64,000 nucleotides of DNA, taken from the NCBI GenBank assembly GCA_958296195.1, contig OY282455.1:1488001-1552000 (forward strand), given 5' to 3'. The notes under the pieces are model-generated. The model did not search any database and was not told where the DNA came from. It was given only the letters and a program-made list of their open reading frames with translations. A program made the translations under genes and the position numbers. Shown here in pieces: positions 8,684 through 25,898 of this stretch (its first letter is position 1; every line of letters starts with the position of its first letter). This DNA comes from an uncultured Pseudomonadales bacterium. Its GTDB lineage: Bacteria; Pseudomonadota; Gammaproteobacteria; Pseudomonadales; Azotimanducaceae.

Positions 8684-11128
8684 ATGTCGATTAAGGATCA
8701 TGGAACTGCTTCCAGTTTTGGCGTTTTGTTGGCTTGTTGCCTCTCGGTTACGGCCTTGGCCCAAGACGCAACCGAAGCGCCCGGGGCAGGTCCCGTCATA
8801 GAGGAAGTCTTTGTGACCGCCACGAAACGGGGGGCGGTTGCCGCGCAGGACGTGGCCTACAACATCTCGGTGGTCAACGGGGAGTTTCTCGACGACGTTG
8901 GGGCGGATGACTTTTACGGCTTCGCCCGTCGGACCGGGATTCAAGCCGAGGACGAAGGTCCTGGCGAGAAACGCTTCATCATCCGCGGCGTGAACCTCGC
9001 CGGCAGCGCCAGTGTGGGCCTGTACTACGATGACATCCCCACCACCGGCTGGGGGCAGGGCGGCAACGGCGACGGCCAGCCGGACTTCCGCGTCGTGGAC
9101 TTGGAGCGCATCGAGATCCTGCGCGGGCCGCAAGGCACCCTGTACGGCGCCGGGTCGGTCGGCGGCACCATCCGCTTCGTCACCAACAAGCCCAACATGC
9201 GGGAGTTTGAAGGCAGCCTCAGCGCCGATTTCGCTGGCGTCAGCCAAGGGGGCGGCGCCAATTACGCCTTTGACGGGGTGATCGACATTCCCTTGGTCGA
9301 AGACCGGCTGGGCCTGCGCGTCGTCGGCTTTTGGATGGATCGGGACGGCGTCACCGACAACCTGTTTTTGGGCATTGACGGCACCAACTACCAAGAGGTG
9401 GATGGCGGCCGGGCCATTCTGCGCTGGAACGCCACGGATGCGCTGACGGTCACCGGGTCCTATTGGCGGCAGAACACCGAGGTGGGCGACCGCCCTGAGT
9501 GGAATCCGCTTTGCAACCCCGCGGTGCATGTCTGCTACGTCAACCCGGCGGTTGGCACCGAGCCGCCGGACTCCACGGCCATCACCACAAGCAGCAACAG
9601 CCAGCGCATCTCCACACAAGGCACGGTCACGCCCTACGTTGGCGATATGGACATCTACGCCTTGAACGTGCAGCACGAATTTGACTTCGGCACCTTCACC
9701 AGCGCTACTTCCTGGTTCATCCGCGACGTCAACGCGGCCTTTGAAGGCTCCGATTTCTCCGCCGGGCGGTTTTTCAGTCCAGATTCGGTGCTGCCGGTGG
9801 GTACCGCCCAAGACACGGAGCAGTTCAGTCAAGAGCTGCTGTTCTCCTCGCGTCTCGGCGGTCCGTTCAATTTCGTGACCGGCTTCTTCTATCAAAACCG
9901 GGAGAGCCTGTTCCGCCAAAGAGCCGCGGTGGTCGCCCCGGCACCTGGCCTCACGGGCTTGGATTTGCTGTACCAAGGTCAGCCGCAGGAGAGCTTTGTG
10001 AACACGATGTGGTTCCTGGAGAACATCGTGGGCATTCCAGGGGTGTTGGCCAGCTTGGGCAGCGGCGTCATTTTCGACACTCAGTTTGAGCGGGACTTCA
10101 CCCACACGGCCGTGTTCGGGGAGGTCAACTGGCAGGTTGCGGAGCGGTTCATGCTGGACTTCGGGGTGCGCTGGTTTGACTTGGATAACGAGATAGAGGA
10201 AACCAAGCTGCTCAAGCCGGACTTCACCAACCTGCTCCTAGGGGTGCCGCTTGCGGAGGCCAACCAGTCGTCGAGTTTCAGCGACACCATCCTCAAGGTC
10301 ACCGCGTCCTTTGACTTCACCGACGACATCCTGGGCTACGCCACCTGGAGCGAAGGGTTTCGGGAGGGCGGCGTAAATCCCTTAAGGACAGCCGAGTTTC
10401 TGCCCATCGGCTTCGAGCCGGACACGGTCACCAACTACGAGGCCGGCTTGAAGATGGATCTGCTGGACCGGCAACTGGTGGTCAACACCGCCTTCTACCT
10501 CGTCGAGATCGAAAACCTGCAGGTTTTCGTCCCCGACCCGACCGGGCTGTTCAACCTGTTCCTGAACCTTGAAGAAGGCGGCGCCGACATCAAGGGCTTT
10601 GAGCTGGAGGTGACCTATGCGCCCTTCGCCATCGCTGGTCTGCAGGCGCAGTTCGGCGCCCAGTGGGCGGATGCCGAATACACGGCGGACATCCCCGGCT
10701 TAAACCCCGACGGCAGCCTTGGCATAGGGGACCCGGAGCGGGACGGGCGGGACGGCGATCCCTTGGAGCAAGTCGGCGATTGGACCCTGAGCGGAAACAT
10801 TCAGTATGGCTTCCCGGCTTTCGGCCGGCAGGCTTTCGTGATGCTGGACTGGTCCTACACGGGCGAAGCCTTTTCCGACGACAATCCCCGTTCCCCCTTC
10901 GGCGACGACGTGGGCGACTACCACTTGGTGGGCCTGCGCTTGGGCGTCAGCGGTGAGGAGTGGGGCGGCTGGAGCGCGACCCTGTACGCCAATAACCTGT
11001 TCGATGAGGACGGCTTAATCACTTACGAAGACCGCAAGGAGTTATTCCCGGACATTCGCCCCAATAGCCCAACCTACATCACCACCTATCCGCGCACCAT
11101 CGGCTTGAACCTGAGCAAGACCTTCTAG
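8684..11128 (+). CDS. TonB-dependent receptor
   Basis: 814 aa. Start set at the ATG at 8684 because AGGAGG lies five bases upstream; a GTG at 8678 is too close to it. A Sec signal peptide ends near ALAQ (about residue 27), followed by a TonB-box-like IEEVFVTATKR, a plug domain (IIRGVNLAGSASVGLYYDD, VERIEILRGPQGTLYGAGSVGG-type motif near 140-165) and a 22-strand-type barrel ending in the outer-membrane phenylalanine (NLSKTF). This is the non-siderophore class that imports diverse nutrients across the outer membrane. A secreted amidohydrolase follows at once, so the ligand may be an amide, peptide or cyclic amide. Confidence 0.92.
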   Translation: MSIKDHGTASSFGVLLACCLSVTALAQDATEAPGAGPVIEEVFVTATKRGAVAAQDVAYNISVVNGEFLDDVGADDFYGFARRTGIQAEDEGPGEKRFIIRGVNLAGSASVGLYYDDIPTTGWGQGGNGDGQPDFRVVDLERIEILRGPQGTLYGAGSVGGTIRFVTNKPNMREFEGSLSADFAGVSQGGGANYAFDGVIDIPLVEDRLGLRVVGFWMDRDGVTDNLFLGIDGTNYQEVDGGRAILRWNATDALTVTGSYWRQNTEVGDRPEWNPLCNPAVHVCYVNPAVGTEPPDSTAITTSSNSQRISTQGTVTPYVGDMDIYALNVQHEFDFGTFTSATSWFIRDVNAAFEGSDFSAGRFFSPDSVLPVGTAQDTEQFSQELLFSSRLGGPFNFVTGFFYQNRESLFRQRAAVVAPAPGLTGLDLLYQGQPQESFVNTMWFLENIVGIPGVLASLGSGVIFDTQFERDFTHTAVFGEVNWQVAERFMLDFGVRWFDLDNEIEETKLLKPDFTNLLLGVPLAEANQSSSFSDTILKVTASFDFTDDILGYATWSEGFREGGVNPLRTAEFLPIGFEPDTVTNYEAGLKMDLLDRQLVVNTAFYLVEIENLQVFVPDPTGLFNLFLNLEEGGADIKGFELEVTYAPFAIAGLQAQFGAQWADAEYTADIPGLNPDGSLGIGDPERDGRDGDPLEQVGDWTLSGNIQYGFPAFGRQAFVMLDWSYTGEAFSDDNPRSPFGDDVGDYHLVGLRLGVSGEEWGGWSATLYANNLFDEDGLITYEDRKELFPDIRPNSPTYITTYPRTIGLNLSKTF

Positions 11129-11150
11129 GATGCGCCCCGCAGAGAAAACC

Positions 11151-12539
11151 ATGAGAGAACGCAAAATTGCATCCCGCCTAGGGCGGACCCTCGTTTCCGC
11201 CTTGGCGTTGCTGTTGTTCGCCCAACAGCCTTTGGCGGCGGACTTGGTCATTGCCAACGCCCGCCTGATCGACGGCACCGGCGCTCCGCCCCGAGACGGC
11301 GTCAACATCCTGCTGTCCGGCGGCCGTGTGCAGTCCGTCGGCACGGACGAGATTGACGCCAAGGGCGTCAAGGTCATTAACGCCAAGGGCGGGACTGTCC
11401 TGCCAGGCCTGACCGATGCGCATGTGCATTCGTCGATGGAGTTCCCCGTGCCGCCCGAGGAAATGGCCCCCGGCTTCGGCTATCCCGACCCCAAGTGGGC
11501 GGTTTACAGCGACGACAAGATGCGCGCCTTCATGAAGGGCAACTTCGGCAAGCACATGCTGCGATACCTGGAAAGCGGCGTCACCACCATCATCGACCCC
11601 GGCACCCACTTCCCTTGGGGCTTGGAGATGCGGGAAAGCCTGCGTTCCGGCAAGGTCCTGGGGCCGCGCCTTTACATCACCGGGCGGCTGTTCACGGCGC
11701 CGGGCGGGCATCCGGCCTCCACCGTCTGCAACAGCGATCCTTGGTGCGTGCAGTCAATCACCGTGGCCACGGACGACCCGGAAGCGGCCCGGGAAGGCGT
11801 CCGCACCCTAGTCGCCGGCGGCGTGGACGGGGTCAAGATGGTCTATGACGGGCAGCGGGAGGACGGTGCGCCCGGAACCTTCGGTGATTCCACTCCCCAT
11901 CTCAAAAAGGAGGTGATGGAGGCAGTCATCGACGAAGCCCACAAGCAGGGCGTAAAGGCGTTGGCGCACACCTTCGTGATCGCGGACACATGGGAGGTTG
12001 TGAAGGCCGGCGTTGACGGCTTGGTCCACTTCACCACGATGGCGGATGGCAGCTACCAAACTCCGGATGGTGAATATCTGCCGGCCGTGCTCAACCGCTT
12101 TGACGTGCCCACAACCACCACCATCGGTTTCCTCGGTGCGGAGGAGGAAATGCCGGATGCGCCGCCGGAAATGCAGGAGCAGTGGAACGCCATGCTGGCC
12201 AGCATCGGGCCAAGCCTGCGGGCCATGGCCGACGCCGGCGTAACCTTGATGTTCGGCACGGACTACTTCGGCCTGGGCATCGACCCGCATCCCCGGGACA
12301 TGCTGCTGAACGAAGCCCGCACCTTGGTCAAGGCCGGCTTCAGCGAGATGGAGGTGATCCAAATGACCACCGGCAACGCAGCCAGGCATCCTCTAACGCC
12401 GGACGCCACCGGCACCATTGAGCCGGGCAAGTTCGCCGACGTCATCATGCTCGACGGCGACCCGCTGCGGAACATTGACGCCATCTTTTCCCCACAGGTG
12501 GTCATCAAGGCTGGGGAGATCGTCATCGACAAACGCTAA
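11151..12539 (+). CDS. Secreted amidohydrolase family metallo-hydrolase
   Basis: 462 aa from the ATG at 11151, chosen because it directly precedes a signal peptide (RKIASRLGR, hydrophobic core, cleavage near QQPLAA). An in-frame ATG at 11130 would add seven residues. The amidohydrolase pattern is complete: composite beta strand ADLVIANARLIDGTG, metal-binding LTDAHVHS (near 88), a later His strand KALAHTF, GLVHFTT, and the aspartate strand LMFGTDYFGLG, ending in IEPGKFADVIMLDGDPL. It belongs to the imidazolonepropionase-like branch, which includes periplasmic dipeptidases and cyclic-amide hydrolases. It begins 22 bp after the receptor gene and should be co-transcribed; substrate unknown. Confidence 0.85.
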   Translation: MRERKIASRLGRTLVSALALLLFAQQPLAADLVIANARLIDGTGAPPRDGVNILLSGGRVQSVGTDEIDAKGVKVINAKGGTVLPGLTDAHVHSSMEFPVPPEEMAPGFGYPDPKWAVYSDDKMRAFMKGNFGKHMLRYLESGVTTIIDPGTHFPWGLEMRESLRSGKVLGPRLYITGRLFTAPGGHPASTVCNSDPWCVQSITVATDDPEAAREGVRTLVAGGVDGVKMVYDGQREDGAPGTFGDSTPHLKKEVMEAVIDEAHKQGVKALAHTFVIADTWEVVKAGVDGLVHFTTMADGSYQTPDGEYLPAVLNRFDVPTTTTIGFLGAEEEMPDAPPEMQEQWNAMLASIGPSLRAMADAGVTLMFGTDYFGLGIDPHPRDMLLNEARTLVKAGFSEMEVIQMTTGNAARHPLTPDATGTIEPGKFADVIMLDGDPLRNIDAIFSPQVVIKAGEIVIDKR

Positions 12540-12761
12540 TCCGACGCCCGCGCCGCCGCAATCAGCATCCAGTTTTTTGCGCGGCGACGGTCGGTCGGCG
12601 GCTGGTGCGTCCCCCCGCAGTTTCAGGCCTGACATGAGGGGTTCCAGCGCGTGGCCATAGCCTATGGCGGCGCATTCCAAGGCTTGAAGCCGTTGTGGAC
12701 AACCATCGCCAAATTGAATATAAGTGCCAGCAGACCTAAGCTCGCCGCAAGGGAGCACGAA

Positions 12762-13565
12762 ATGGCGTCGCAAGCAGACAGAATCCGACAGCATGTGATG
12801 GAACGCTATGTTCGGCCCTTTCTAGATGCCAATGAGGTTACGCTCTCCATTCGTGCCGGGGATGTCGTGCGCAGCATGGGTCTTGTCAACAGGACTCCAG
12901 CCGTATGCAGTGCCCTTGAAGGTCGGAAGTTCCAACAGGAAGCCGAACATGTAGGGCTTGAGTACTTGGATCGAACGGGACCCGCTAGAAGCACTACAAC
13001 CAGGTTCCGTTACAAGCGGCAGGGTTCACCTAAAACGTTGATCAGGACGCCCACAAAGAAGCAACTGCCCGATCGACCGCCGCTAAAAGCCGTGGCGACC
13101 CAGCGCCCGAAGGTGCCGCCCGCAAGGAACGCTAAGCTGCCGGCCGCAGATCTCTGCCTTGTTTCCTGCGTTAAAACGAAGCAATCTCATCGGGCGCCGG
13201 CTAGGGATCTTTACATATCTGATTGGTTTGCCAAGGTGCGCAAATTGGTTGAAGCTCAAGGCTGGCCTTGGTTCATCCTTTCCGCAAAGCATGGTTTGGT
13301 GCGTCCCGACAAGGAGATCGCTCGCTACGAGAAGAGGCTGCTCACCATGCGGGTGGCCGAGCGGCGGGCATGGGCGAGTGACGTTATGCAGGCGCTGGAG
13401 TGCCATTTGGGCGGTGTGCGAACCGTCGTGGTTTTTGCCGGCCAGCCCTACCGCGAGTTTTTGGTCCCGGAAATGCGCGAGCGCGGCGTTCAAGTTGAGG
13501 TGCCAATGGAACGCCTGAAGTTCGGCGAACAATTGGCTTGGCTAAACGACCGGATCAAGCATTGA
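12762..13565 (+). CDS. DUF6884 domain protein, first gene of a putative defence cassette
   Basis: 267 aa. The ATG at 12762 has GGGAG seven bases upstream; the frame opens earlier without a plausible start. Two parts are visible. Residues 1-90 (RYVRPFLDANEVTLSIRAGD..., NRTPAVCSALEGRKF) resemble a small domain I associate with restriction-like proteins. After a basic, Pro-rich linker, residues 130-267 carry the DUF6884 pattern: LVSCVKTKQSHRAPARDLY, WFILSAKHGLVRPD, YEKRLLTM, ERRAWA. Biochemical function of DUF6884 is not known to me; it looks distantly YaaA-like. The next gene starts inside its stop codon (TTGA), so the two are coupled, and a YaaA-RelE fusion follows 57 bp later. Confidence 0.68.
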   Translation: MASQADRIRQHVMERYVRPFLDANEVTLSIRAGDVVRSMGLVNRTPAVCSALEGRKFQQEAEHVGLEYLDRTGPARSTTTRFRYKRQGSPKTLIRTPTKKQLPDRPPLKAVATQRPKVPPARNAKLPAADLCLVSCVKTKQSHRAPARDLYISDWFAKVRKLVEAQGWPWFILSAKHGLVRPDKEIARYEKRLLTMRVAERRAWASDVMQALECHLGGVRTVVVFAGQPYREFLVPEMRERGVQVEVPMERLKFGEQLAWLNDRIKH

Positions 13566-14305
13566 CCGCAAAGCCCTCACCGAGCCGCGTTGCCGACACC
13601 ATACGCTTCTACGATCTTCTGGCCCGCATTGAAGATCGGGCTGGCGGGCGCCGCACCCTCGGCGTCTGCGATGGCCGCATGGATTGGCCGCGGCGCGGCG
13701 TCTATTTTTTCTTTGAAGAGGGCGAGCAGCGCAGTTTGTCGGGCGGCGGCAGCCGCGTGGTGCGGGTTGGCACCCATGCGCTGACAGACCGTTCAAGGAC
13801 AACGCTGTGGGCACGGCTTTCCCAGCACCGCGGCAGCGCCAAGAGCGGGGGCGGCAACCACCGCGGCTCCATCTTCCGGCTGTTGGTAGGCAGGGCGCTG
13901 GTCGAGCGCGGCGATTGCCCAGCGCCGCAGTCTTGGGATATAGCCAGCGACCCCGGTGCCGCGGCCCGCAAACTAGGCATGACTCGCGTAGCGGTGAAAG
14001 ACGCGGAAGCGGACTTGGAGCGCCGCGTCAGCGCCCACATCGGGCGGATGCCGTTTCTGTGGTTGAACATCCCCGACAATCCAAGCCCGCACAGCGACCG
14101 AGGGGTCATCGAGCGCAACGCCATCGCCTTGCTCAGCCATGCGCGAAGCGTCGGTGCCGATGCGCCCTCCGGTCGTTGGCTGGGCGCTTGCAGCGACCGA
14201 CCGCGGGTTCGCGCCTCCGGGCTGTGGAACAACAACCACGTTGAAGAGGACTACGACGTCGCCTTTCTGGATGGGATGGAAGCGCTGGTGGACGCATGGG
14301 CATAG
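13562..14305 (+). CDS. GIY-YIG-like nuclease family protein
   Basis: 247 aa from a TTG at 13562 overlapping the previous stop by four bases, with GGA seven bases upstream; a TTG at 13538 is the alternative. A GIY-YIG-like core is visible: WPRRGVYFFFEEGE (GIY counterpart), SRVVRVGTHAL (YIG counterpart), then an Arg in LWARLSQHRG, GNHRGSIFRLLVG, and a candidate catalytic Glu in DRGVIERNAIALL. The second half (LGACSDRPRVRASGLWNNNHV) is a family-specific tail. Such folds cut DNA or RNA with one metal ion. Linkage to the DUF6884 gene and the YaaA-RelE gene suggests a three-gene defence or stress unit. The nuclease assignment comes from motifs only. Confidence 0.58.
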   Translation: MTAKPSPSRVADTIRFYDLLARIEDRAGGRRTLGVCDGRMDWPRRGVYFFFEEGEQRSLSGGGSRVVRVGTHALTDRSRTTLWARLSQHRGSAKSGGGNHRGSIFRLLVGRALVERGDCPAPQSWDIASDPGAAARKLGMTRVAVKDAEADLERRVSAHIGRMPFLWLNIPDNPSPHSDRGVIERNAIALLSHARSVGADAPSGRWLGACSDRPRVRASGLWNNNHVEEDYDVAFLDGMEALVDAWA

Positions 14306-14362
14306 TCCTCGTTGGACGCGAGGTAAAATGCAAGGCTCTCAATTCCTGTGGGAGACATCCTC

Positions 14363-15469
14363 ATGCCATACCAGCCATCGAGCATGGTGCTGTTCCTGAC
14401 CAACTGCTCACTCACCAAGGTGCCAGGCGGCGGCGCCGAGTACGATGAAGGGCAGGCGATCACTTCCGTTTTGCCGAACTCCCTAGGAGACCGGCTTCTC
14501 GAACGGCGAGCAAGAATTTTCCAGCTCGTGAAAAACGCCTCTGATTTTTATTGGCAGGGCACCCCCGTCTCGGAGCTTACATTCAACCAGGAACTCACCA
14601 GTGGTCCGGACCTTGGCGGCCGGCACACCGCCACCTATCTGCCGGCGCTTGACCGCTACCAAGGCCGTTTTTTCAAGGCACTGGGAGTGGAAGGCAAACA
14701 GCGGTTGGTCGAATCTGAGCACCACACCCTGTTCCTCTCCGGCCTGTACGGTCTGCTGCGGCCAATGGAGCCAATTCAACTGTACAGCTGCCCGCTTGAT
14801 CCGCCAGTCGCCGAGCGATGGCGGAAGAACGATTTGTTAACCGAAGTGCTGTGCGAGTACGTTGAGCGATTTGGCATTGCCCTCATCGTTGACTTGACCG
14901 CAATCGACGCCTATCGGCGACTGATCGACTGGAACAAAGTTGCTGAGACAAAAACGGATGTGCTGCACTGTTTCGATGTGATGGCCGCCGGCGAATCGGC
15001 GCTCGTGTTCTTCGGTGAGTGCATGGCCGAGCAGTTGCTCAGCTTATCCGAGGGGGAGCTCGTCGGTTTGCCATCCGAATCTCAGTTTGGGACCGTAATC
15101 CTGCGGTCGCTACGCGAAGCTATGGCTGGATTGCTTTCCGAAAGTGCCAACACTGACGAGCCGTTGTCGGACAGCCGGCTAGGAGATGACAAGCCCACTG
15201 TCGATGGGCATTGGCGGCCTAAGTTCCAGAAACCTTTCGTAAAGGATCTGCGCAGTCACATAAGTACTGAGGCAATGCAGGCGATCGTTGAAATCTGCGA
15301 AGACCCGATGACGCCCCACGGAGATACGATTCAACCGCTCAAGCACGGATTGTCAGGCAAATGGCGTTATCGCCGCGGCGACTTCCGCATTGTCTATTGG
15401 CCAGACAGGCACAAAGGCAGGGTTGTCTTCGAGAACTTCAAAAGTCGAGGCGAGGATTATAAAAAATAG
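14363..15469 (+). CDS. YaaA-like protein fused to a RelE-type toxin domain
   Basis: 368 aa; ATG at 14363 with GGGAG eight bases upstream. Residues 1-210 follow the peroxide-stress protein YaaA (DUF328) plan: TNCSLTKVPGGGAEYDE, TYLPALDRYQGRFFKALG and LFLSGLYGLLRPMEPIQLYSC. YaaA binds DNA and limits intracellular iron under peroxide stress. After a polar linker (about 265-290), the last 80 residues form a complete RelE/ParE-superfamily domain (FVKDLRSHISTEAMQ, LKHGLSGKWRYRRGDFRIVY, FENFKSRGEDY) with the basic residues expected of an mRNA interferase. No antitoxin gene adjoins. I know no described protein with this order; activity is inferred from each half separately. Confidence 0.7.
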   Translation: MPYQPSSMVLFLTNCSLTKVPGGGAEYDEGQAITSVLPNSLGDRLLERRARIFQLVKNASDFYWQGTPVSELTFNQELTSGPDLGGRHTATYLPALDRYQGRFFKALGVEGKQRLVESEHHTLFLSGLYGLLRPMEPIQLYSCPLDPPVAERWRKNDLLTEVLCEYVERFGIALIVDLTAIDAYRRLIDWNKVAETKTDVLHCFDVMAAGESALVFFGECMAEQLLSLSEGELVGLPSESQFGTVILRSLREAMAGLLSESANTDEPLSDSRLGDDKPTVDGHWRPKFQKPFVKDLRSHISTEAMQAIVEICEDPMTPHGDTIQPLKHGLSGKWRYRRGDFRIVYWPDRHKGRVVFENFKSRGEDYKK

Positions 15470-15948: not shown

Positions 15949-16338
15949 TCAGTTGTTCTTCCTAATATATCCCGCGTTCCAAAGAGCCAAGACCACATCC
16001 ATCTGCTGGTTTCGTGCCTTAGATTGGGGGTGTGTTACCTGGTTCCATAATTCCGATGAATCTTTCGCCAAGCCGGGCGAGGTGCGAAGCAATTTGACCG
16101 CTTCGACCGCGTACTTTTTGATTACCGCTGAGGTTGTGTATTTTCCCGGAGGGATGCCAAAGATGAGACCATCTTCAGCCAAACCCAAGAATACGCACCT
16201 GGGGCAACTTTTTTTTCGGCTTTCTGTCTGCGATGGAAAAACTTCCTTAGCAGACTCCTTCCACGCTCGCACCGGGTCCACGCCATTTTGTGCCCTTTTC
16301 ACGGCGCGAAGCGCAACACTTCCATGTCCCTTTTTCAT
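15949..16338 (-). CDS. Small conserved protein, DUF6979-like
   Basis: 129 aa; ATG at 16338 with AAGGAG about ten bases upstream. Recognisable pattern: VALRAVKRAQNGVDPVRAWKESAKEVF, then SCPRCVFLGLAEDGLIFGIPPGKYTTS, KKYAVEAVKLLR, and the C-terminal NQQMDVVLALWNAGYI. I recall this layout from the DUF6979 family, small cytoplasmic proteins of unknown function that often lie in accessory regions. The gene is isolated, flanked by a higB relic and the LRR gene, and has lower GC content than the catabolic genes, which fits horizontal acquisition. Family name moderately sure, function unknown. Confidence 0.6.
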   Translation of the reverse strand: MKKGHGSVALRAVKRAQNGVDPVRAWKESAKEVFPSQTESRKKSCPRCVFLGLAEDGLIFGIPPGKYTTSAVIKKYAVEAVKLLRTSPGLAKDSSELWNQVTHPQSKARNQQMDVVLALWNAGYIRKNN

Positions 16339-16417: not shown

Positions 16418-16766
16418 TCAACGACCACGGCGTTTCAGTGCAGTGCCCATTGTGGAAATGTTGGATAGGTGCCCGGAAATGCTATCCAACAGGCTCACGC
16501 CAACAACCGATCGATCGGCGGTTATGAAAAAGCGCCACTTGCCTGCGCCGTCGCCGAGCGTTCCCGCCAGGCCTTGTGCGCCTTCCTCTAGGTCGAGCGC
16601 CGACAGGGTGCGGGATTCTCCAGCGGCCAGCGTCAAGGTCACCGGCCCCGCGGTGTTGCCTTGGTCGTCAACGCCTTCAATGCTCACGCTTGCGGCGGTC
16701 GCTCCGGTGTTGGCAAGGCGCAGCATGCTAGCCCTTGTGCGGTTGCTTGCGGGGTTAAAGGTGGGG
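16418..16766 (-). pseudogene. Displaced 3' part of the LRR/module protein (after a frameshift)
   Basis: This frame continues the protein of the preceding gene after a one-base slip at a run of four G (16763-16766, plus strand). It encodes PTFNPASNRTRASMLRLANTG, TLTLAAGESRTLSALDLEEG and LLDSISGHLSNISTM, the same order as the second half of the module already present upstream in the LRR gene. Removing one base would restore a product ending at 16418. Either a real frameshift or a sequencing error in the homopolymer. Confidence 0.8.
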
Positions 16767-18605
16767 AACCACAAGCCGTCCTTGGGCGTCCCTTTGCAGC
16801 ACATCGTGCATGGCGGTCAGGAACCCGTCGTTTGTGCGAACGTAGGCAAGCGCCCAAAAATCCGGTAAGGGTCCGACGTCCAAACGCCAATCGCCTCGCG
16901 TTGGGCGTCCAATGCCTTCGATGCCCTTGGCGGCGTTCCCGTTCTCAAGGTCGCCGGCGTTGAAGTGAAAGGCTAGTTTCGCGCCCAACGGGATTTCAAT
17001 CGGGTCGGCAGCGGTTCCCGCGTCGTCAAACGCATGAATTCGCACCATGCCAGGTTCCTGTGAATAGCTAATAAGGATACGCACGAATCCCTGCCGTATC
17101 GCGTCGGAAGCCGAAACCAACAACGGCACGTTTATGCTGATATCCCTTGTGGAAATGCTGTTGGCCATTGTGGAAATGTTGGATAGGTGTCCGGAGGCGC
17201 TGTCAAGCAGGCTCATGCCGAAAACGGATGACCCTGCCCCTCCTAAGAGCAAGTACCATTTGCCGGTGCCGTCGCCAAGCCTTCCGGTCAAGCCCCATGC
17301 GCCTTCCTCTAGGTCGAGCGCCGACAGGGTGCGGGATTCTCCAGCGGCCAGCGTAAAGGTCACTGGGCCGGCTAGGGTGCGTTGGTCGTCAAGGCCTTCA
17401 ATCCTCACGCTTGCGGCGGTCGCCCCGGTGTTGACTAGGCGCAGCCTGCTAACCCTTTCCCTGTTGCTTGCGGGGTTGAAGGTTACAACCACAGGCCGGT
17501 CAAGGTCGTTCCTTGGCAGCACGTCGTGCATGGCGGTCAGGAACCCGTCGTTTGTGCGAACGTAGGCAAGCGCCCGGACGTTCAAGGCGCTTTCCAAATC
17601 CAAGCGCCAATCGCCTCGCCCTGGGCGTCCAACGGCTTCAATGCCCTTTGCGGCGTTCCCGTTCTCAAGGTCGTCGGCGTTGAAGTGAAAGGCTTGGTGC
17701 GCGCCCAACGGGATTTCAATCGGGTCGGCGGCGGTTCCCGCGTCATCAACCGCGAAAATACGCACCATGCCGGATTCGCCGGATTCGTTGATGATGCGCA
17801 CAAAGCCCTGCCGATCGGGGTTGGAAGCCGAAACCAACAACGGCACGGCGGCAGCAAGGCGTGTTGCCGGAGGCTCTAGCCCATCCGGCGCTTCGGTTTG
17901 GAAGTCCAATTCCAAGTCAACCCCGCTGGGAAGCTTGGCAAACAATGAGTCATTCCGGCTCAATCCCACAAGGTGGTTGGCCGTCAACTCCAGTGTGCTC
18001 AAGTTGGTCAGGCTGTCGAACACGCCCGCCGGTAAGGTTGCCAACTGGTTGTCGTTCAACCACAGGTGTTGCAAGTTGGTCAGGCCATCGAACACGCCCG
18101 CCGGCAAGGCCGTCAACTCGTTGTAGCTCAAGCGCAGTTCTTCCAAGCGGGTCAGGCCATTGAACACGCCTGCCGGCAAGGTCGCCAATTGGTTGTGCGA
18201 CAACGACAGTGTGCGCAAGTTGGTCAGGCCGCTGAACACGCCCGCCGGTAAGATCGTCAACTGGTTGTGGCTCAAGCGCAATGTGCGCAAGCTGTTCAGG
18301 CCGTTGAACACGCCGGCCGGCAAGGCTTCCAACCAGTTACGGTTCAACCGCAGGTCTCGCAAGTTGGTCAGGCCGTCGAAGTCGCCAGCTTGCAAGGTCG
18401 TCAACCTGCTTTGACTAAATATAAATAGTCGCAATTCGGCCATCTGCGCGGAATCCACGGCGGCGCAGTCTTCCTCGCCAAGGTCCCCCATGATGGCGTC
18501 GCGCACCTGCGGCGTTCTGCCGCAAATGTCCACGGTTTGAGCATGGCCTAAAGCCGGCAGCACGGTGGCAAGCAGCAAATTGGCCAGTAGCTTTTTCAAG
18601 GTCAT
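16755..18605 (-). CDS. Secreted leucine-rich-repeat protein with tandem C-terminal modules (frameshifted)
   Basis: 616 aa as read. Start at 18605 gives a signal peptide (MTLKKLLANLLLATVLPALGHAQ). After a Cys-containing cap (ICGRTPQVRDAI, DCAAVD) come about six 24-residue leucine-rich repeats of the form LTNLRTLSLSHNQLATLPAGVF (about 60-205). A roughly 220-residue module follows: VPLLVSASNPDRQGFVRIIN, HFNADDLENGNAAKGIE, LAYVRTNDGFLTAMHDVLPR, VTFNPASNRERVSRLRL, ESRTLSALDLEEG, LLDSASGHLSNIST. A second copy starts at once but is cut by a frameshift at 16763-16766. A surface or extracellular binding role is likely. The same module recurs at 61144-62598. Confidence 0.8.
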   Translation of the reverse strand: MTLKKLLANLLLATVLPALGHAQTVDICGRTPQVRDAIMGDLGEEDCAAVDSAQMAELRLFIFSQSRLTTLQAGDFDGLTNLRDLRLNRNWLEALPAGVFNGLNSLRTLRLSHNQLTILPAGVFSGLTNLRTLSLSHNQLATLPAGVFNGLTRLEELRLSYNELTALPAGVFDGLTNLQHLWLNDNQLATLPAGVFDSLTNLSTLELTANHLVGLSRNDSLFAKLPSGVDLELDFQTEAPDGLEPPATRLAAAVPLLVSASNPDRQGFVRIINESGESGMVRIFAVDDAGTAADPIEIPLGAHQAFHFNADDLENGNAAKGIEAVGRPGRGDWRLDLESALNVRALAYVRTNDGFLTAMHDVLPRNDLDRPVVVTFNPASNRERVSRLRLVNTGATAASVRIEGLDDQRTLAGPVTFTLAAGESRTLSALDLEEGAWGLTGRLGDGTGKWYLLLGGAGSSVFGMSLLDSASGHLSNISTMANSISTRDISINVPLLVSASDAIRQGFVRILISYSQEPGMVRIHAFDDAGTAADPIEIPLGAKLAFHFNAGDLENGNAAKGIEGIGRPTRGDWRLDVGPLPDFWALAYVRTNDGFLTAMHDVLQRDAQGRLVVPHL

Positions 18606-18627
18606 TCTCCAGGTTGACGGAAGCACA

Positions 18628-18633
18628 ATTATA
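18628..18633 (-). promoter_or_regulatory. Candidate -10 box (TATAAT) for the LRR gene
   Basis: A perfect TATAAT lies on the minus strand 23 bp ahead of the chosen start codon, in otherwise GC-rich DNA. No good -35 is found 16-18 bp upstream, so the assignment is weak. Confidence 0.35.
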
Positions 18634-18788
18634 GCCAAGCCGCGCAAAGCAAACTGCCGGCAAGGAAGATCCTAGACACGCCTTAGGGCGCTTCTGGGCG
18701 CTTTCTGGCTGCCGGTAGTAGTGTGAAAGCGAGGAGTAGGGCCATCAAAGCCCGCGGGGCGTTGCTTGCTTAGCGAAAGCGCCGCCGC

Positions 18789-19006: not shown

Positions 19007-19590
19007 CATTTTCCGCGAAATCCGCCTCTACCGGACCGCCGCATCTCCACCAACCTGATCCTCAGCTCCATCGGAGAGCAAGTCTTGGGTAGGCCGCGGT
19101 CGTTTTGACGCGGATGCGACAGCGGGATGGTCGCGGCCTGATTAAGAGGCAGTCCCTAGGTCATCCCGCTGGCTTGGCGGAGCCGCTCCAGCAGTTCGTC
19201 GCCGCTGGCACACTCGACAATCCAGTCGCCCACCTCAATCAAGCGGTCCGCGTCGGCGCCGTCCAGCAGGGCCGACAGCCGCCGGGCGGTTTCCGCGTCA
19301 AAGCGCCGCTCCGCCAAGCGGCGCAGCAGGTCCGCTTGGCCTTGGTGAACGCCTTGCCGAACCCCCTGCTGTAAGCCTTGCCGCACTCCCTGTGCTATGG
19401 CGTTGTCATGCCATTCCTGCAGCCTCGCCTCCATCAACGTCGTCATCTCTCCTGCCCCTTTCTCCTGCGCCAACATCCGTTCGTAGTCCGCCAGCGGCGG
19501 CAGCGCCAGTAGTTGGGCGCCAGACTTTATGAGGGCGATGGCTCAACCAAGGGTGTGCCGGCCCGTCCTAGGGATTGACGCAGCAACGAA
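19007..19590 (-). mobile_element. Rpn mobile unit, copy 1 (internally deleted, both ends kept)
   Basis: Compared with the full-length copy at 24470-25898, this copy starts with the same CATTTTCCGCGAAATCCGCC, runs through the 3' part of the rpn gene, loses about 860 bp of interior, and resumes at 19533 with the 5' flank (GGGCGATGG, CCTAGGGATTGACG, GCAACGAA at 19590). Keeping both ends while losing the interior is how non-autonomous derivatives look. Its left end lies against a broken higA and its right end supplies the 3' end of the AbiEii-like gene. No terminal inverted repeats were seen. Confidence 0.7.
19156..19508 (-). pseudogene. Rpn-family nuclease gene, C-terminal fragment (copy 1)
   Basis: Encodes only the tail of the Rpn-like protein: LPPLADYERMLAQEKGA, LQEWHDNAIAQGVRQGLQQ repeats and RLAERRFDAETARRLSALLDGADADRLIEVGDWIVEC. 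The nuclease domain is absent. An in-frame ATG at 19476 could give a 106-residue peptide, but there is no sign that it is expressed. Confidence 0.75.
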
Positions 19591-20504
19591 TTCGCATCCT
19601 CCTCGTCGCACCAGCCAATCGCGTGCAGGTGGCGAATGCATCTTTGCGCCGAAGGGAACTGTCGCAACAAACGCTTCGCAGTATGCGGCCCGTCCCGCCA
19701 AAGAAGACGGCACCCCTCTTGCATGGATGCGTCGATGGTGACGGAGCCTTGCGGATGACGGCTCAGCAGCACGATTGGGTCGGACGCCAAGGCGGCATCC
19801 AGCGCCGCCTGCACCGCTTGGGGAGGAACGCGGCTCAGGATGGCGTCCTTACGATGGGAACGGTCCCAAGCCTCTTGCAAGATGGAGCTTTCGGACAGTG
19901 CATGGCTCAGCGCAATACGGTCGCTGGGTGCCGCGCACTCCATTCGATTCGTCAGCCACCACGCCAGGTCATATCGGTCCCGCCCCCGCCGACGCTCCTT
20001 GGGATCGATTGCCAGCGCCATTTTTTGACGCACCAGTTCATCGGGCCGATACACTCGCAGGCCCGCCGCCAATATGGATAGCTGATGTTCCGCCGTCTCG
20101 GCGGCATCGCCGCGCAACACTCTAGTGTCCACTGAGCAGGTGCGCCCACCAAAGCGAGGATGCGACAACCGCACCTCAAAGCCCCGTCCATGGCGGCGCT
20201 TTGGCCAATGCACCGACGCAGCCAGCTCCTTTTGGGCTTGCGTGAAGCCTGTGCTGATTGCTGACGCCACATCCCCATCTTGGTGAAGCAGGTCCAAATC
20301 GATGTCCTGGGATGGCCTCGACAATCCGTAGCATAGGCGGGCAGCGGTGCCGCCGAGCAGGATGGCGGGCGAGCCTTGCCCTTCCAATTGGTGCTGCGCC
20401 AGCGCAATGGCCCGATGCAGGACGCCTTCCCACCATGCGTCCCGGCCGTCAGGCGACTCTGGCACGGGCGGCAGCAGTGACGGCAAGTCCATCGCCGCCG
20501 TCAT
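19527..20504 (-). CDS. AbiEii/AbiGii-type nucleotidyltransferase (putative type IV toxin)
   Basis: 325 aa. The nucleotidyltransferase signature is clear: AILLGGTAARLCYG (near 47-60) followed by SRPSQDIDLDLL (near 63-74), then RPDELVRQKMALA and GRDRYDLAWWL in the positions of the AbiEii family. Those toxins transfer nucleotides to tRNA or other targets and are countered by an upstream antitoxin. The gene overlaps the upstream gene 20501-21250 by four bases (ATGA), the usual sign of a pair. The last 19 or so residues (SLLRQSLGRAGTPLVEPSPS) and the stop are encoded by the end of the adjacent mobile unit, so the native C-terminus was replaced. Confidence 0.78.
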   Translation of the reverse strand: MTAAMDLPSLLPPVPESPDGRDAWWEGVLHRAIALAQHQLEGQGSPAILLGGTAARLCYGLSRPSQDIDLDLLHQDGDVASAISTGFTQAQKELAASVHWPKRRHGRGFEVRLSHPRFGGRTCSVDTRVLRGDAAETAEHQLSILAAGLRVYRPDELVRQKMALAIDPKERRRGRDRYDLAWWLTNRMECAAPSDRIALSHALSESSILQEAWDRSHRKDAILSRVPPQAVQAALDAALASDPIVLLSRHPQGSVTIDASMQEGCRLLWRDGPHTAKRLLRQFPSAQRCIRHLHAIGWCDEEDANSLLRQSLGRAGTPLVEPSPS

Positions 20505-21319: not shown

Positions 21320-22003
21320 TTCGCGGGGAATTCGCCCCCATATCGACCAACCTGATCCTCAGCTACATCGGCGAGCACGTCTTAAGGACGTCGCGGTCGT
21401 TTTGACGCATGCGGCAGCGAGGTGGTCGCGGACCTATTAACGGGGAGTCGCTAGGCCAACCCACCGGCTTGGCGGAGCCGCTCCAGCAGTTCGTTGCCGC
21501 TGCCGCACTCGACAATCCAGTCGCCCACATCAATCAAGCGGTCCGCGTCGGCGTCTTCCAGCAGGGCCGACAGCCGCCGGGCGGTTTCCGCGTCAAAGCG
21601 CCGCTCTGCCTGGCGGCGCAGCAGGTCCACTTGGCCTTGGTGGACGCCTTGCCGCACCCCCTGCTGCAAGCCTTGCCGCACCCCCTGCTGCAAGCCTTGC
21701 CGCACCCCCTGCGCGATGGCGTTGTCATGCCATTCCTGCAGCTTCGCCTCCATCAACGTCGGCATCTCTCTTGCTCCTTTCTCCTGCGCCAACATCCGTT
21801 CGTAGTCCGCCAGCGGCGCGGCGGCAGCGCCAATCCCCGTCGCCGCAGCAAATGCTCCGCCCGGGCGTGGAAGCCCCGGCGCAGGCCCGCCGACTCCGGT
21901 CCGCTCCACAGCTGGAATGCCTCCGCCAGCAGCCTCGGCACGTCGTCGCCGGAGGCGCTCTCCAAGCGGATCAGCGCCGCCTGGTGGTTGCGTGGCAGCG
22001 GCC
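21320..22003 (-). mobile_element. Rpn mobile unit, copy 2 (5'-truncated, frameshifted)
   Basis: Matches copy 3 from its 3' flank (CCAACCTGATCCTCAGCT, GGTCGTTTTGACGC) through the rpn tail and into the middle of the gene, ending at about 22003. The 5' half of the gene and the right end are absent. It is more diverged in its flank than copies 1 and 3, and resembles copy 4 there. Confidence 0.7.
21451..21995 (-). pseudogene. Rpn-family nuclease gene, C-terminal half with frameshift (copy 2)
   Basis: Encodes the C-terminal region with one extra GVRQGLQQ unit relative to copy 1. A five-base insertion (GCGCG, near 21816-21820) against copy 3 throws the upstream part (LESASGDDVPRLLAEAFQLWSG) into another frame, so a continuous product is impossible. 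Confidence 0.75.
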
Positions 22004-24469: not shown

Positions 24470-25898
24470 CATTTTCCGCGAAATCCGCCTCTACCGAACC
24501 GCCCGCATCTCCACCACCTGATCCTCAGCTCCATCAGAGAGCAAGTTTTGGGTAGGCCGCGGTCGTTTTGACGCGGATGCGACAGCGGGGTGGTCGCGGC
24601 CTGATTGAGAGGCAGTGCCTAGACCAAATCGCTGGCTTGCCGAAGCCGCTCCAGCAGTTCGCCGCCGCTGCCGCACTCGACAATCCAGTCGCCCACCTCA
24701 ATCAAGCGGTCCGCGTCGGCGCCTTCCAGCAGGGCCGATAGCTGCCGGGCGGTTTCCGCGTCAAAGCGCCGCTCCGCTTGGCGGTGTAGCAGGTCCGCTT
24801 GGCCTTGGTGGACGCCTTGCCGCACCCCCTGCCGTAAGCCCTGCCGTACCCCCTGCTGCAAGCCTTGCCGCACACCCTGCGCAATGGCGTTGTCGTGCCA
24901 TTCCTGCAGCCTCGCCTCCATCAACGTCGTCATCTCTCTTGCTCCTTTCTCCTGCGCCAACATCCGTTCGTAGTCCGCCAGCGGCGGCAGCGCCAATCCC
25001 CGTCGCCGCAGCAAATGCTCGGCCCGGGCGTGGAAGCCCCGACGCAGCCCCCCTGACTCCGGCCCGCTCCAGCGCTGGAACGCCTCGGCCAGCAGCCTCG
25101 GCACGTCGTCGCCGGAGGCGCTCTCCAAGCGGATCAGCGCCGCTTGGCGGTTGTCCGGCGGCAGCCGGCGCATGAGCGCATGGTCGCCGGCAAGCGTCGG
25201 ATAGTCAATCACAACATAGCTTCGCCATTGGTTAAGCTCACGGCCCGCCTCCGTCGGCGGACCCAGCAGGGGGCCGAACCGGGCGGTCGGAGCGCTCCAG
25301 GGCTTGGCGCCGTTGTGGATGACCACCGCCACAACGTCGGGTGCGCATCCCTCCCTCCTGTGTGCGCCGATGTCCCGCTGGTTGAGTTCAAGCAGGTACA
25401 GGTACTCATGCATCCGCCAAGCCATGTCCGCATCCGTTTCCGACTGGAACTCCAGCAGGACGTTGACGTGCGGGTGCCGGCCGTCGGCCAGCGGCGCCCC
25501 GTCCCGGCGCTCCACCCGCCAGGCCTTGTCGCCGATGCGTCCGTGCAGCGCCGGGCCGACGCGCTCCTTGTCCATTGGCGCAAGGGTGCTGAAGTCCAAC
25601 CGGTCGGCCCAGCCGGGTGCGACGAAGCCGCGCAGGACGTCCTCGACCATTCGCGGGTCGGCGTGGATCAGCTTGAAGGGATGGTCGCTCGTGGCCATGC
25701 GGCCCATTGTGGGCGCGGGAAAGCCGTTGAACAGCGGGAATGGCGGCGTTCGCACGGGAATTCGGGAGGTCTCCGCCAAAGTGATATGGCGCTGACGGCG
25801 GAGGCGACGCGTTCAAGGGCCGCTTCCGTCCTTGCCCACAGCTTGGGCGATGGCGCAACCAAGGGTGTGCCCGCCCTAGGGATTGACGCCGCAACGAA
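24470..25898 (-). mobile_element. Rpn mobile unit, copy 3 (full length)
   Basis: The only copy with an uninterrupted rpn gene. Ends are defined by where similarity to copy 1 begins and stops: CATTTTCCGCG at 24470 and GATTGACGCCGCAACGAA at 25898. About 1.43 kb. A conserved 3' flank of about 150 bp separates the left end from the stop of the gene. It lies between the TPR gene and the intact higBA. Confidence 0.65.
24619..25698 (-). CDS. Rpn family recombination-promoting nuclease / putative transposase (PD-(D/E)XK)
   Basis: 359 aa from the ATG at 25698; an ATG at 25707 is equally possible, and the frame opens upstream only with TTG. The N-terminal domain begins HPFKLIHADPRMVEDVLRGF, as in Rpn/Transposase_31 proteins, with a PD-(D/E)XK-like strand VNVLLEFQSETD (near 77-88) followed by YLYLLELNQRD. 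A middle helical part (LESASGDDVPRLLAEAFQRWSG) leads to MLAQEKGAREM, four-residue GVRQ/GLQQ-type repeats, and a conserved tail (RRFDAETARQLSALLEGADADRLIEVGDWIVEC). Rpn proteins nick DNA and promote recombination. Three further copies or remnants lie in this window. Confidence 0.8.
   Translation of the reverse strand: MATSDHPFKLIHADPRMVEDVLRGFVAPGWADRLDFSTLAPMDKERVGPALHGRIGDKAWRVERRDGAPLADGRHPHVNVLLEFQSETDADMAWRMHEYLYLLELNQRDIGAHRREGCAPDVVAVVIHNGAKPWSAPTARFGPLLGPPTEAGRELNQWRSYVVIDYPTLAGDHALMRRLPPDNRQAALIRLESASGDDVPRLLAEAFQRWSGPESGGLRRGFHARAEHLLRRRGLALPPLADYERMLAQEKGAREMTTLMEARLQEWHDNAIAQGVRQGLQQGVRQGLRQGVRQGVHQGQADLLHRQAERRFDAETARQLSALLEGADADRLIEVGDWIVECGSGGELLERLRQASDLV

What the first reader, a model, noticed from the sequence alone, without database searches (positions are those of the whole stretch)
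12762..15469. Three-gene DUF6884 / GIY-YIG / YaaA-RelE cassette
Seen: a DUF6884 protein, a GIY-YIG-like protein coupled to it by a TTGA overlap, and a YaaA protein fused to a RelE domain, all on one strand in under 3 kb and flanked by higB debris. Known: YaaA binds DNA and protects against peroxide damage; RelE domains cleave mRNA; GIY-YIG folds cut nucleic acid. Inference: a compact defence or abortive-infection system, not one I can match to a named system.
Basis: partly seen in the sequence, partly recalled or inferred. Interest (0 to 1): 0.8.

Follow-up and report, generated by a model that had tools for sequence, protein, structure and literature searches.

The report
Base-sensor and nuclease-like defence gene pair
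Two overlapping genes in an uncultured bacterium match a catalogued but untested anti-virus candidate that pairs a DNA-base-handling protein with a nuclease-like protein, and a third, loosely linked gene joins a cousin of the first protein to a toxin-like RNA-cutting domain, so this is a likely but unproven defence cassette.

Summary
The three genes are real and correctly placed. Genes 1 and 2 are not unnamed: they match PADLOC's candidate pair PDC-M57A/M57B (E 6e-35, 2e-78). Protein 2 belongs to a broad family (245 relatives in species genomes, best 80 kept). In 84 of 95 loci examined it lies within 1.5 kb of a YaaA/DUF6884/DpdC-superfamily protein, in seven fused to it, in both orders. That pairing is the main result. 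Protein 2 has GIY-YIG-like motifs and a confident model with a matching strand/helix order, but no fold library, Pfam scan or profile comparison confirms a nuclease. Gene 3 is a YaaA domain with a RelE-like tail. It adjoins the pair in three of the 94 other loci, once on the opposite strand. In the host family it is in 6 of 206 genomes; five also hold protein 2, but it adjoins it in three. So gene 3 is a loose module. Most likely: a DNA-binding, base-flipping protein guides a GIY-YIG-like nuclease against modified or foreign DNA, with YaaA-RelE as an optional second effector. Defence-island enrichment was not shown.

The parts
12762..13565 (+). P1: wHTH-like N-terminal domain + DUF6884 domain (PADLOC PDC-M57A)
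   Evidence: ORF with ATG; PDC-M57A 6.4e-35; DUF6884 9e-48
12762..13031 (+). P1 N-terminal domain, helix/strand order of a winged helix (boundary approximate)
   Evidence: Model of the natural P1-P2 fusion from L051: H5-24 E28-32 H33-39 H46-54 H56-62 E64-70 E79-84; domain found in 14 loci including the window; winged-helix reading is mine, no fold match
13155..13547 (+). P1 DUF6884 domain with CxxxK (SCVKTK) and LSAxxG (LSAKHG)
   Evidence: Pfam PF21818 residues 132-262; motifs as described in PMC11701544 (passages)
13562..13565 (+). TTGA overlap: stop of P1 / start of P2
   Evidence: Sequence; same overlap in G001
13562..14305 (+). P2: PDC-M57B, GIY-YIG-like by motif and strand/helix order (G46-V-Y48, R68-V-G70, R85xxxH89, E184, N223)
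   Evidence: PDC-M57B 1.6e-78; Y48, R68, G70, R85, H89, E184, N223 invariant in 86 homologues; AlphaFold2 pLDDT 95.1; no fold or profile confirmation
14363..15469 (+). P3: YaaA-family protein with RelE-like C-terminal domain
   Evidence: PF03883 3.1e-9; RelE-like PHROG 1213 5e-7
14630..14947 (+). P3 YaaA core (SGLYG...IQLYSC)
   Evidence: PF03883 residues 95-200 of the GTG-started ORF
15221..15463 (+). P3 RelE/ParE-like tail (WRYRRGDFR...SRGEDY)
   Evidence: PHROG 1213 residues 292-372; tail 40% identical to that of G001 while the YaaA part is 82%
12668..12710 (.). 43-bp antisense fragment of an Rpn/Transposase_31-type gene (frame read by eye), at the left junction of the cassette
   Evidence: 95% copies at own-genome C1:1475493 and 785391; full-length relative L039:13500-14657 matches PF04754, 6.4e-9

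Best explanation
P1 and P2 form a two-component DNA-targeting defence module (PADLOC candidate PDC-M57). P1 binds DNA through its winged-helix-like domain and uses the DUF6884 pocket (CxxxK and LSAxxG) to flip and read, or chemically attack, an unusual base such as a phage-type modification or damage. P2, a GIY-YIG-like nuclease, then cuts that DNA. P3 is a loosely linked extra module: a YaaA-type sensor of the same superfamily whose RelE-like tail would cleave mRNA and stop growth if the first step fails. Shown here: the pairing across phyla, the fusions, the conserved motifs and selection on the genes. Inferred: base recognition, nuclease action, the division of labour and the anti-phage role.
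For: P1 and P2 match PDC-M57A/B. 84 of 95 P2 loci have a YaaA/DUF6884/DpdC-superfamily neighbour within 1.5 kb: 35 upstream DUF6884, 5 DUF6884-P2 fusions, 40 downstream YaaA/DpdC-like, 2 P2-partner fusions, 2 other arrangements. CxxxK...LS[AG]xxG is in 79 of 89 partner ORFs against 2 of 3238 other ORFs. Some partners carry a DNA-binding-type domain (wHTH-like, 14 loci; MarR in L077 above Pfam's cut-off and in L076 below it). DpdC, to which P1 is weakly similar (5e-5), acts on the base dPreQ0 of DNA (PMC12839542, passages), and DUF6884 protein YfjM was modelled flipping a base (PMC11701544, passages). P2 keeps a GIY-YIG-type motif set; the core pattern, which I wrote after seeing P2, occurs in 3 of 1566 other ORFs. 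P3 in G005 is followed 34 nt downstream by a different protein with IYVGKSADVRRRGRDH.
Against: No Foldseek hit at E<=0.001 for P2 in PDB or BFVD; no GIY-YIG hit in any of 86 members; the second GIY-YIG tyrosine is an invariant Arg. The G005 neighbour of P3 has no Pfam hit and only a weak GIY-YIG profile score (0.2), with two unrelated-looking ORFs scoring better. Neighbouring genes are not clearly richer in defence genes than control stretches (53 PADLOC families in 111 ORFs against 39 in 102). P1, P2 and the YaaA part of P3 have different dS to G001 (0.15, 0.06, 0.41), so P3 has its own history. Eleven of 95 P2 loci lack a partner within 1.5 kb. The partner HMMs were built iteratively on the same ORF set, so their E-values are optimistic.
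Confidence: 0.45

Rival explanations
1. P1-P2 is a selfish homing-type element: a free-standing GIY-YIG-like nuclease with a DNA-binding helper that inserts at fixed sites.
For: In viral contigs L047, L129, L130, L131, L132 and genome locus L120 the P2 gene lies between a phage capsid gene and a cement-protein gene (Pfam names from L047 only). Internally deleted copies lie elsewhere in the own genome. Distribution is patchy (2 of 9 genomes of the genus).
Against: The frequent YaaA/DUF6884-type partner and the fusions are not needed for homing; L128 has the gene beyond the cement gene. Whether the chromosomal loci share a target site was not tested.
Confidence: 0.2
2. A DNA-repair pair: the DUF6884 protein recognises or removes damaged bases and P2 incises, as in excision repair. 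P3 is an unrelated stress toxin.
For: YfjM (DUF6884) was reported among interactors of abasic and RNA-base lesions (PMC11701544, passages). YaaA is in the peroxide response (PMC4834066, passages).
Against: Patchy distribution and phage-borne copies; a separate canonical YaaA is kept at C1:665967-666692; P2 is split over two frames in four places in the family (G848, G850, G863, G869).
Confidence: 0.2
3. P1-P2 is a DNA-modifying (not cleaving) or nucleobase-modifying pair; P2 is a new fold.
For: DpdC-type chemistry in the superfamily (passages); confident P2 model without a significant library match.
Against: GIY-YIG-like order of strands, helices and conserved Y, R, H, E, N.
Confidence: 0.15

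Closest known systems
PADLOC PDC-M57 (M57A + M57B)
   Same: Both proteins match their models, adjacent and same strand
   Different: P1 has an extra N-terminal wHTH-like domain and P3 stands next to it; 42 of 95 P2 loci have a downstream YaaA/DpdC-like partner instead (40 separate, 2 fused)
Dpd system, DpdC
   Same: Weak matches to DpdC models: P1 5e-5; among ten other proteins best 2e-7 in L110, weaker in the rest, none in two P3 homologues
   Different: No TGT or DndB-type match among the ten window ORFs scanned; paired with a nuclease-like protein. dpdA/dpdB elsewhere in the genome were not searched for
GIY-YIG restriction enzymes (Eco29kI type)
   Same: Order GVY ... VG ... RxxxH ... E ... 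WN (sequences); fold order recalled
   Different: YIG tyrosine replaced by Arg; no profile or fold match
YaaA (PF03883)
   Same: P3 core passes the Pfam cut-off
   Different: RelE-like tail; far below every NCBIfam YaaA equivalog cut-off; genome also has a separate canonical YaaA
RelE/ParE toxins
   Same: Tail with W-R-Y-R, R, R and Y invariant in four homologues; weak PDB match to a RelE, E 0.024
   Different: Fused to a YaaA domain; no antitoxin was searched for

Membership tests
PADLOC PDC-M57 | Match to M57A | tested here: met
   6.4e-35 over 131-265
PADLOC PDC-M57 | Match to M57B | tested here: met
   1.6e-78 over 17-253 of the 255-aa ORF
PADLOC PDC-M57 | Genes adjacent | tested here: met
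   4-nt overlap. PADLOC's own system rule was not seen
PADLOC PDC-M57 | Anti-phage activity | not testable with these tools
   No paper in the library holds 'PDC-M57' in its main text
GIY-YIG nuclease | Family profile match | tested here: not met
   0 GIY-YIG hits among 86 members at E<=1
GIY-YIG nuclease | Motif order and strand/helix order | tested here: met
   canonical order recalled; YIG tyrosine is Arg
GIY-YIG nuclease | Same fold as a solved member | tested here: inconclusive
   No Foldseek hit E<=0.001; HHalign controls between known GIY-YIG families also fail
DUF6884 (P1) | CxxxK and LSAxxG, profile match | tested here: met
   9e-48; motifs present in the sequence
YaaA PF03883 (P3) | Pfam profile match above cut-off | tested here: met
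   37.1 bits against 29.6
Peroxide stress protein YaaA, NCBIfam equivalog (P3) | NCBIfam equivalog cut-off | tested here: not met
   Best 25.4 bits against 392
RelE/ParE (P3 tail) | Profile match above cut-off | tested here: inconclusive
   Window copy below Pfam cut-off, PHROG match 5e-7, L051 homologue above cut-off
Dpd system | dpdA and dpdB present | not tested
   Only ten window ORFs were scanned with Pfam

The most novel reading that the evidence does not exclude
A widespread, undescribed class of modification-sensing DNA defence: GIY-YIG-like nucleases habitually paired or fused with DpdC/YaaA-type base-flipping proteins of several lineages. In this lineage it is extended by a paralogous YaaA sensor fused to an mRNA interferase, so that one kind of base sensor drives both DNA cutting and abortive growth arrest. 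(Undescribed as far as the searches show.)
Probability: 0.25. Interest if true: 0.75.

Novelty: new variant of a known kind. Interest (0 to 1): 0.5.

Why it matters
DUF6884 and YaaA have no settled biochemical role, although DpdC, a relative, is a DNA-base enzyme. A recurrent partner that looks like a nuclease, including natural fusions in both orders, gives a direct experiment: does the pair cut DNA with a modified base? If so, an untested PADLOC candidate becomes a defined type of modification-dependent restriction, and the YaaA-RelE fusion a testable sensor-toxin.

Tried and rejected
Profile links from P2 to Eco29kI, UvrC and YhbQ-type GIY-YIG families were tried with HHalign. They gave nothing, but comparisons between known GIY-YIG families failed too (2.4-9.5% probability), so the test says nothing. 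In some searches some sequences were taken from a wrong frame or strand; repeat them cleaned. Foldseek for P2 (PDB, BFVD) and for the L051 fusion (PDB) gave no hit at E<=0.001; the fusion's top hit was 2q07, AF0587 (E 0.095, prob 0.98). A link of that protein to ArcS is recalled, not shown. Some rows of the fusion's alignment A3 carry non-coding letters in front, because open frames from stop to stop were used.

The thought that the P1-P2 cassette is an integron cassette was dropped without a search for attC sites or an integrase: the 43-bp repeat at its left end reads, by eye, as an antisense piece of an Rpn/Transposase_31-type gene (family).

Defence-island enrichment: 111 neighbour ORFs of 17 loci, the first 17 in list order of 54 that met the flank rule among 79 tried, against 102 ORFs from 17 nine-kb stretches of nine genomes of the window's relatives, not of the loci's own genomes. 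53 against 39 PADLOC families; the number of ORFs hit is not given by the tool. Left as not shown.

Haloarchaeal neighbour DUF6610 was tested as a possible TGT relative: no support. The long C-terminal part of P2 in L108 looked nitrilase-like by eye: no match in PDB sequences or plasmids. P3 in viral contigs: none. P3 in 369 genomes of the class: 16 with a match, of which only the own genome has a P3-type protein; the other 15 are weak matches (2.8e-5 to 9.2e-4) over the YaaA core. P3 in plasmids: three Synechococcus records match the tail only. DUF6884 profile against PDB sequences: best 0.045 to an antibody chain, YaaA 5caj 1.1.
Full report
WHAT IS THERE. The window (C1:1488001-1552000 of a 4.31-Mb, one-contig genome) holds three same-strand genes at the stated place. 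P1 (12762-13565) has an N-terminal domain followed by DUF6884 (E 9e-48). P2 (13562-14305) starts inside the stop codon of P1 (TTGA). P3 (14363-15469) has a YaaA core (PF03883, E 3e-9) and a RelE-like tail (PHROG 1213, E 5e-7; Pfam ParE 0.019, below cut-off). P2 has no match in NCBIfam or PHROGs at E<=0.1 and only an HTH_8 hit at 0.27 in Pfam. P3 is far below NCBIfam's YaaA equivalog cut-offs.

P1 AND P2 ARE A CATALOGUED CANDIDATE. PADLOC matches P1 to PDC-M57A (6.4e-35) and P2 to PDC-M57B (1.6e-78). PDCs are putative defence candidates found by guilt-by-embedding, with validation pending for most (PMC12988326, passages; M57 itself is not named there). No paper in the library holds 'PDC-M57'. 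Two hold DUF6884: the Pfam update, which describes the CxxxK and LSAxxG motifs, the distant kinship with YaaA and a modelled base flip by B. subtilis YfjM (PMC11701544, passages), and a preprint that gives DUF6884 for DpdC (PMC11888242, passages). DpdC turns dPreQ0 in DNA into dADG (PMC12839542, passages).

THE P2 FAMILY AND ITS PARTNERS. A scan of one genome per species found 245 relatives of P2, of which the best 80 were returned. There were also nine viral contigs and nine plasmid records; the phage collection had none. In 95 loci (80 genome, 9 viral, 5 of 9 plasmid records, and the window), 84 have a YaaA/DUF6884-superfamily ORF within 1.5 kb at E<=0.01: upstream DUF6884 in 35, fused in front of P2 in 5 (L051, L059, L062, L066, L071), downstream YaaA/DpdC-like in 40, fused behind P2 in 2 (L094, L115), and 2 other arrangements (L064, L118). 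Eleven have none (L069, L108, L111, L127, L133, L134, L135, L042, L044, L045, L046). Of these, L042 and L045 have a DUF6884 protein 2.0-2.3 kb away, L135 starts at a contig end, and L133 and L134 end about 200 bases behind P2. The 95 are not all independent (L131 and L132 are alike; L051/L123 and L083/L085 are from one contig each). The partner models were built iteratively from the same ORFs, so I also scanned ten proteins with Pfam (eight partners and two P3 homologues): all ten match PF03883 or DUF6884 at E 0.0052 or better, three of them above a cut-off. As a further check, CxxxK...LS[AG]xxG is found in 79 of 89 partner ORFs and 2 of 3238 others. The ten without it include truncated, split and single-residue-changed ones. 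L077 has a MarR-type winged helix in front above Pfam's cut-off, L076 below it.

IS P2 A NUCLEASE? In 86 homologues Y48, R68, G70, R85, H89, E184 and N223, among others, are invariant. AlphaFold2 gives pLDDT 95.1 and the order strand 46-56, strand 64-72, helix 82-90, helix 104-116, two more helices, strand 164-169, helix 179-191. With G-V-Y in the first strand, V-G in the second, R-xxx-H in the first helix and E in the last, this is the order I recall for GIY-YIG nucleases, with the second tyrosine replaced by arginine. The pattern G[VIL]Y..[VI]G..RxxxH is in 3 of 1566 other ORFs of 200 aa or more; I wrote it after seeing P2. Against: no Foldseek match at E<=0.001 in PDB or BFVD, no GIY-YIG hit in any of the 86 by Pfam, and no meaningful PDB sequence hit (best 0.26). 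HHalign against GIY-YIG families failed, but so did its positive controls. I therefore say that it looks and may work like a GIY-YIG nuclease, and do not file it as a member.

P1. The natural fusion in L051 was modelled (pLDDT 89.6, pTM 0.67). The N-terminal domain has the helix/strand order of a winged helix (my reading); the fold search gave no hit at E<=0.001.

P3 IS A LOOSE NEIGHBOUR. The YaaA-RelE type adjoins P2 in the window, L048 (= G001), L051 (opposite strand) and L061, 4 of 95 loci. In the host family (206 genomes) P3 is in 6, P2 in 13, both in 5, adjacent in 3; Fisher p 2.5e-6, not corrected for kinship. G005 has P3 without P2 (flags one TGA inside the match, though a 392-codon frame is open), with a GIY-YIG-motif protein 34 nt downstream. 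That protein has no Pfam hit, and its GIY-YIG profile score (0.2) is exceeded by two other ORFs, in L074 and L123, not followed up. In G855 and G863 P3 is split over two frames and on another contig than P2. Between window and G001 the YaaA part is 82% identical and the tail 40%, and DNA-level homology ends at 15147, so tails look exchanged or fast-evolving. Among the proteins held here, P3's YaaA core is nearest, outside its own group, to three winged-helix YaaA partners of P2 (L106, L094, L077; blastp 1e-8 to 5e-7) and then to ordinary YaaA proteins and L076 (about 1e-5); by phmmer the gap is small. P3 and DUF6884 profiles align at the LSxxxGL core (E 6e-4, probability 29.5%). The genome keeps a separate canonical YaaA.

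SELECTION AND MOBILITY. dN/dS to G001 is 0.48 (P1), 0.53 (P2), 0.44 (P3; 0.25 in its YaaA part, 0.62 in its tail); dS is 0.15, 0.06 and 0.48 (0.41 in the YaaA part), so the modules have different histories. P2 is in 2 of 9 genomes of the genus and 3 of 58 relatives (one a weak partial match). In viral contigs L047, L129, L130, L131 and L132, and in genome locus L120, P2 lies between capsid and cement-protein genes; L134 and L135 show one side of the same place, L128 has P2 after the cement gene, and L133 matches neither (Pfam names from L047).

DEFENCE SETTING. 53 PADLOC families matched among 111 neighbour ORFs against 39 among 102 control ORFs. I do not count this as enrichment.

MECHANISM. 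Most likely (0.45) P1 reads or attacks an unusual base and P2 cuts, with P3 as an optional toxin-linked sensor. Homing element, repair pair and modification pair remain open.

Noticed in passing
own genome C1:1475493-1475719 and C1:785391-785612 (L036, L037): Two loci hold the 43-bp Rpn-type fragment followed directly by the 3' end of P2 (93% and 97% identical), i.e. the same internal deletion twice.
   Followed up: partly
window 11080-12674: The amidohydrolase gene and its downstream stretch are 98.9% identical to own-genome C1 about 229194-230785; identity stops at 12674, at the cassette's left end.
   Followed up: partly
window 19011-19508, 21336-21832, 24470-24995; L035, L038, L039: A module with the C-terminal part of an Rpn/Transposase_31-type gene is repeated several times and adjoins other repeated pieces in shuffled order.
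   Followed up: partly
window 16755-18647 (-): Leucine-rich-repeat protein with an internal 82% identical duplication of about 690 bp.
   Followed up: no
window 19527-20504 (-): AbiEii-like nucleotidyltransferase (PF08843 1.6e-13), kept in G001.
   Followed up: no
window 15949-16338 (-): DUF6979 protein (E 2e-41).
   Followed up: no
L047, L129, L130, L131, L132, L120: The P2 gene (with DUF6884) sits between phage capsid and cement-protein genes in related prophage-like contigs.
   Followed up: partly
L237 5964-6539 (-): Protein with IYVGKSADVRRRGRDH right after a YaaA-RelE gene in G005: perhaps a second, different GIY-YIG-like partner of this superfamily.
   Followed up: partly
L074 7539-8480 (+): ORF near a P2 relative that scored best with a small GIY-YIG profile (E 0.003).
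   Followed up: no
L042, L044, L045: Haloarchaeal plasmid relatives of P2 lie near ArdC-like, DUF6610, HNH or ImmA/IrrE-type genes instead of an adjacent DUF6884.
   Followed up: partly
L108 7926-10160: Archaeal P2 relative with a C-terminal extension of about 470 residues of unknown kind; nitrilase-like by eye only, no match found.
   Followed up: partly
own genome C1:3089266-3089715: An Eco29kI-type restriction enzyme (PF09517 4.7e-50) elsewhere in the same genome.
   Followed up: no
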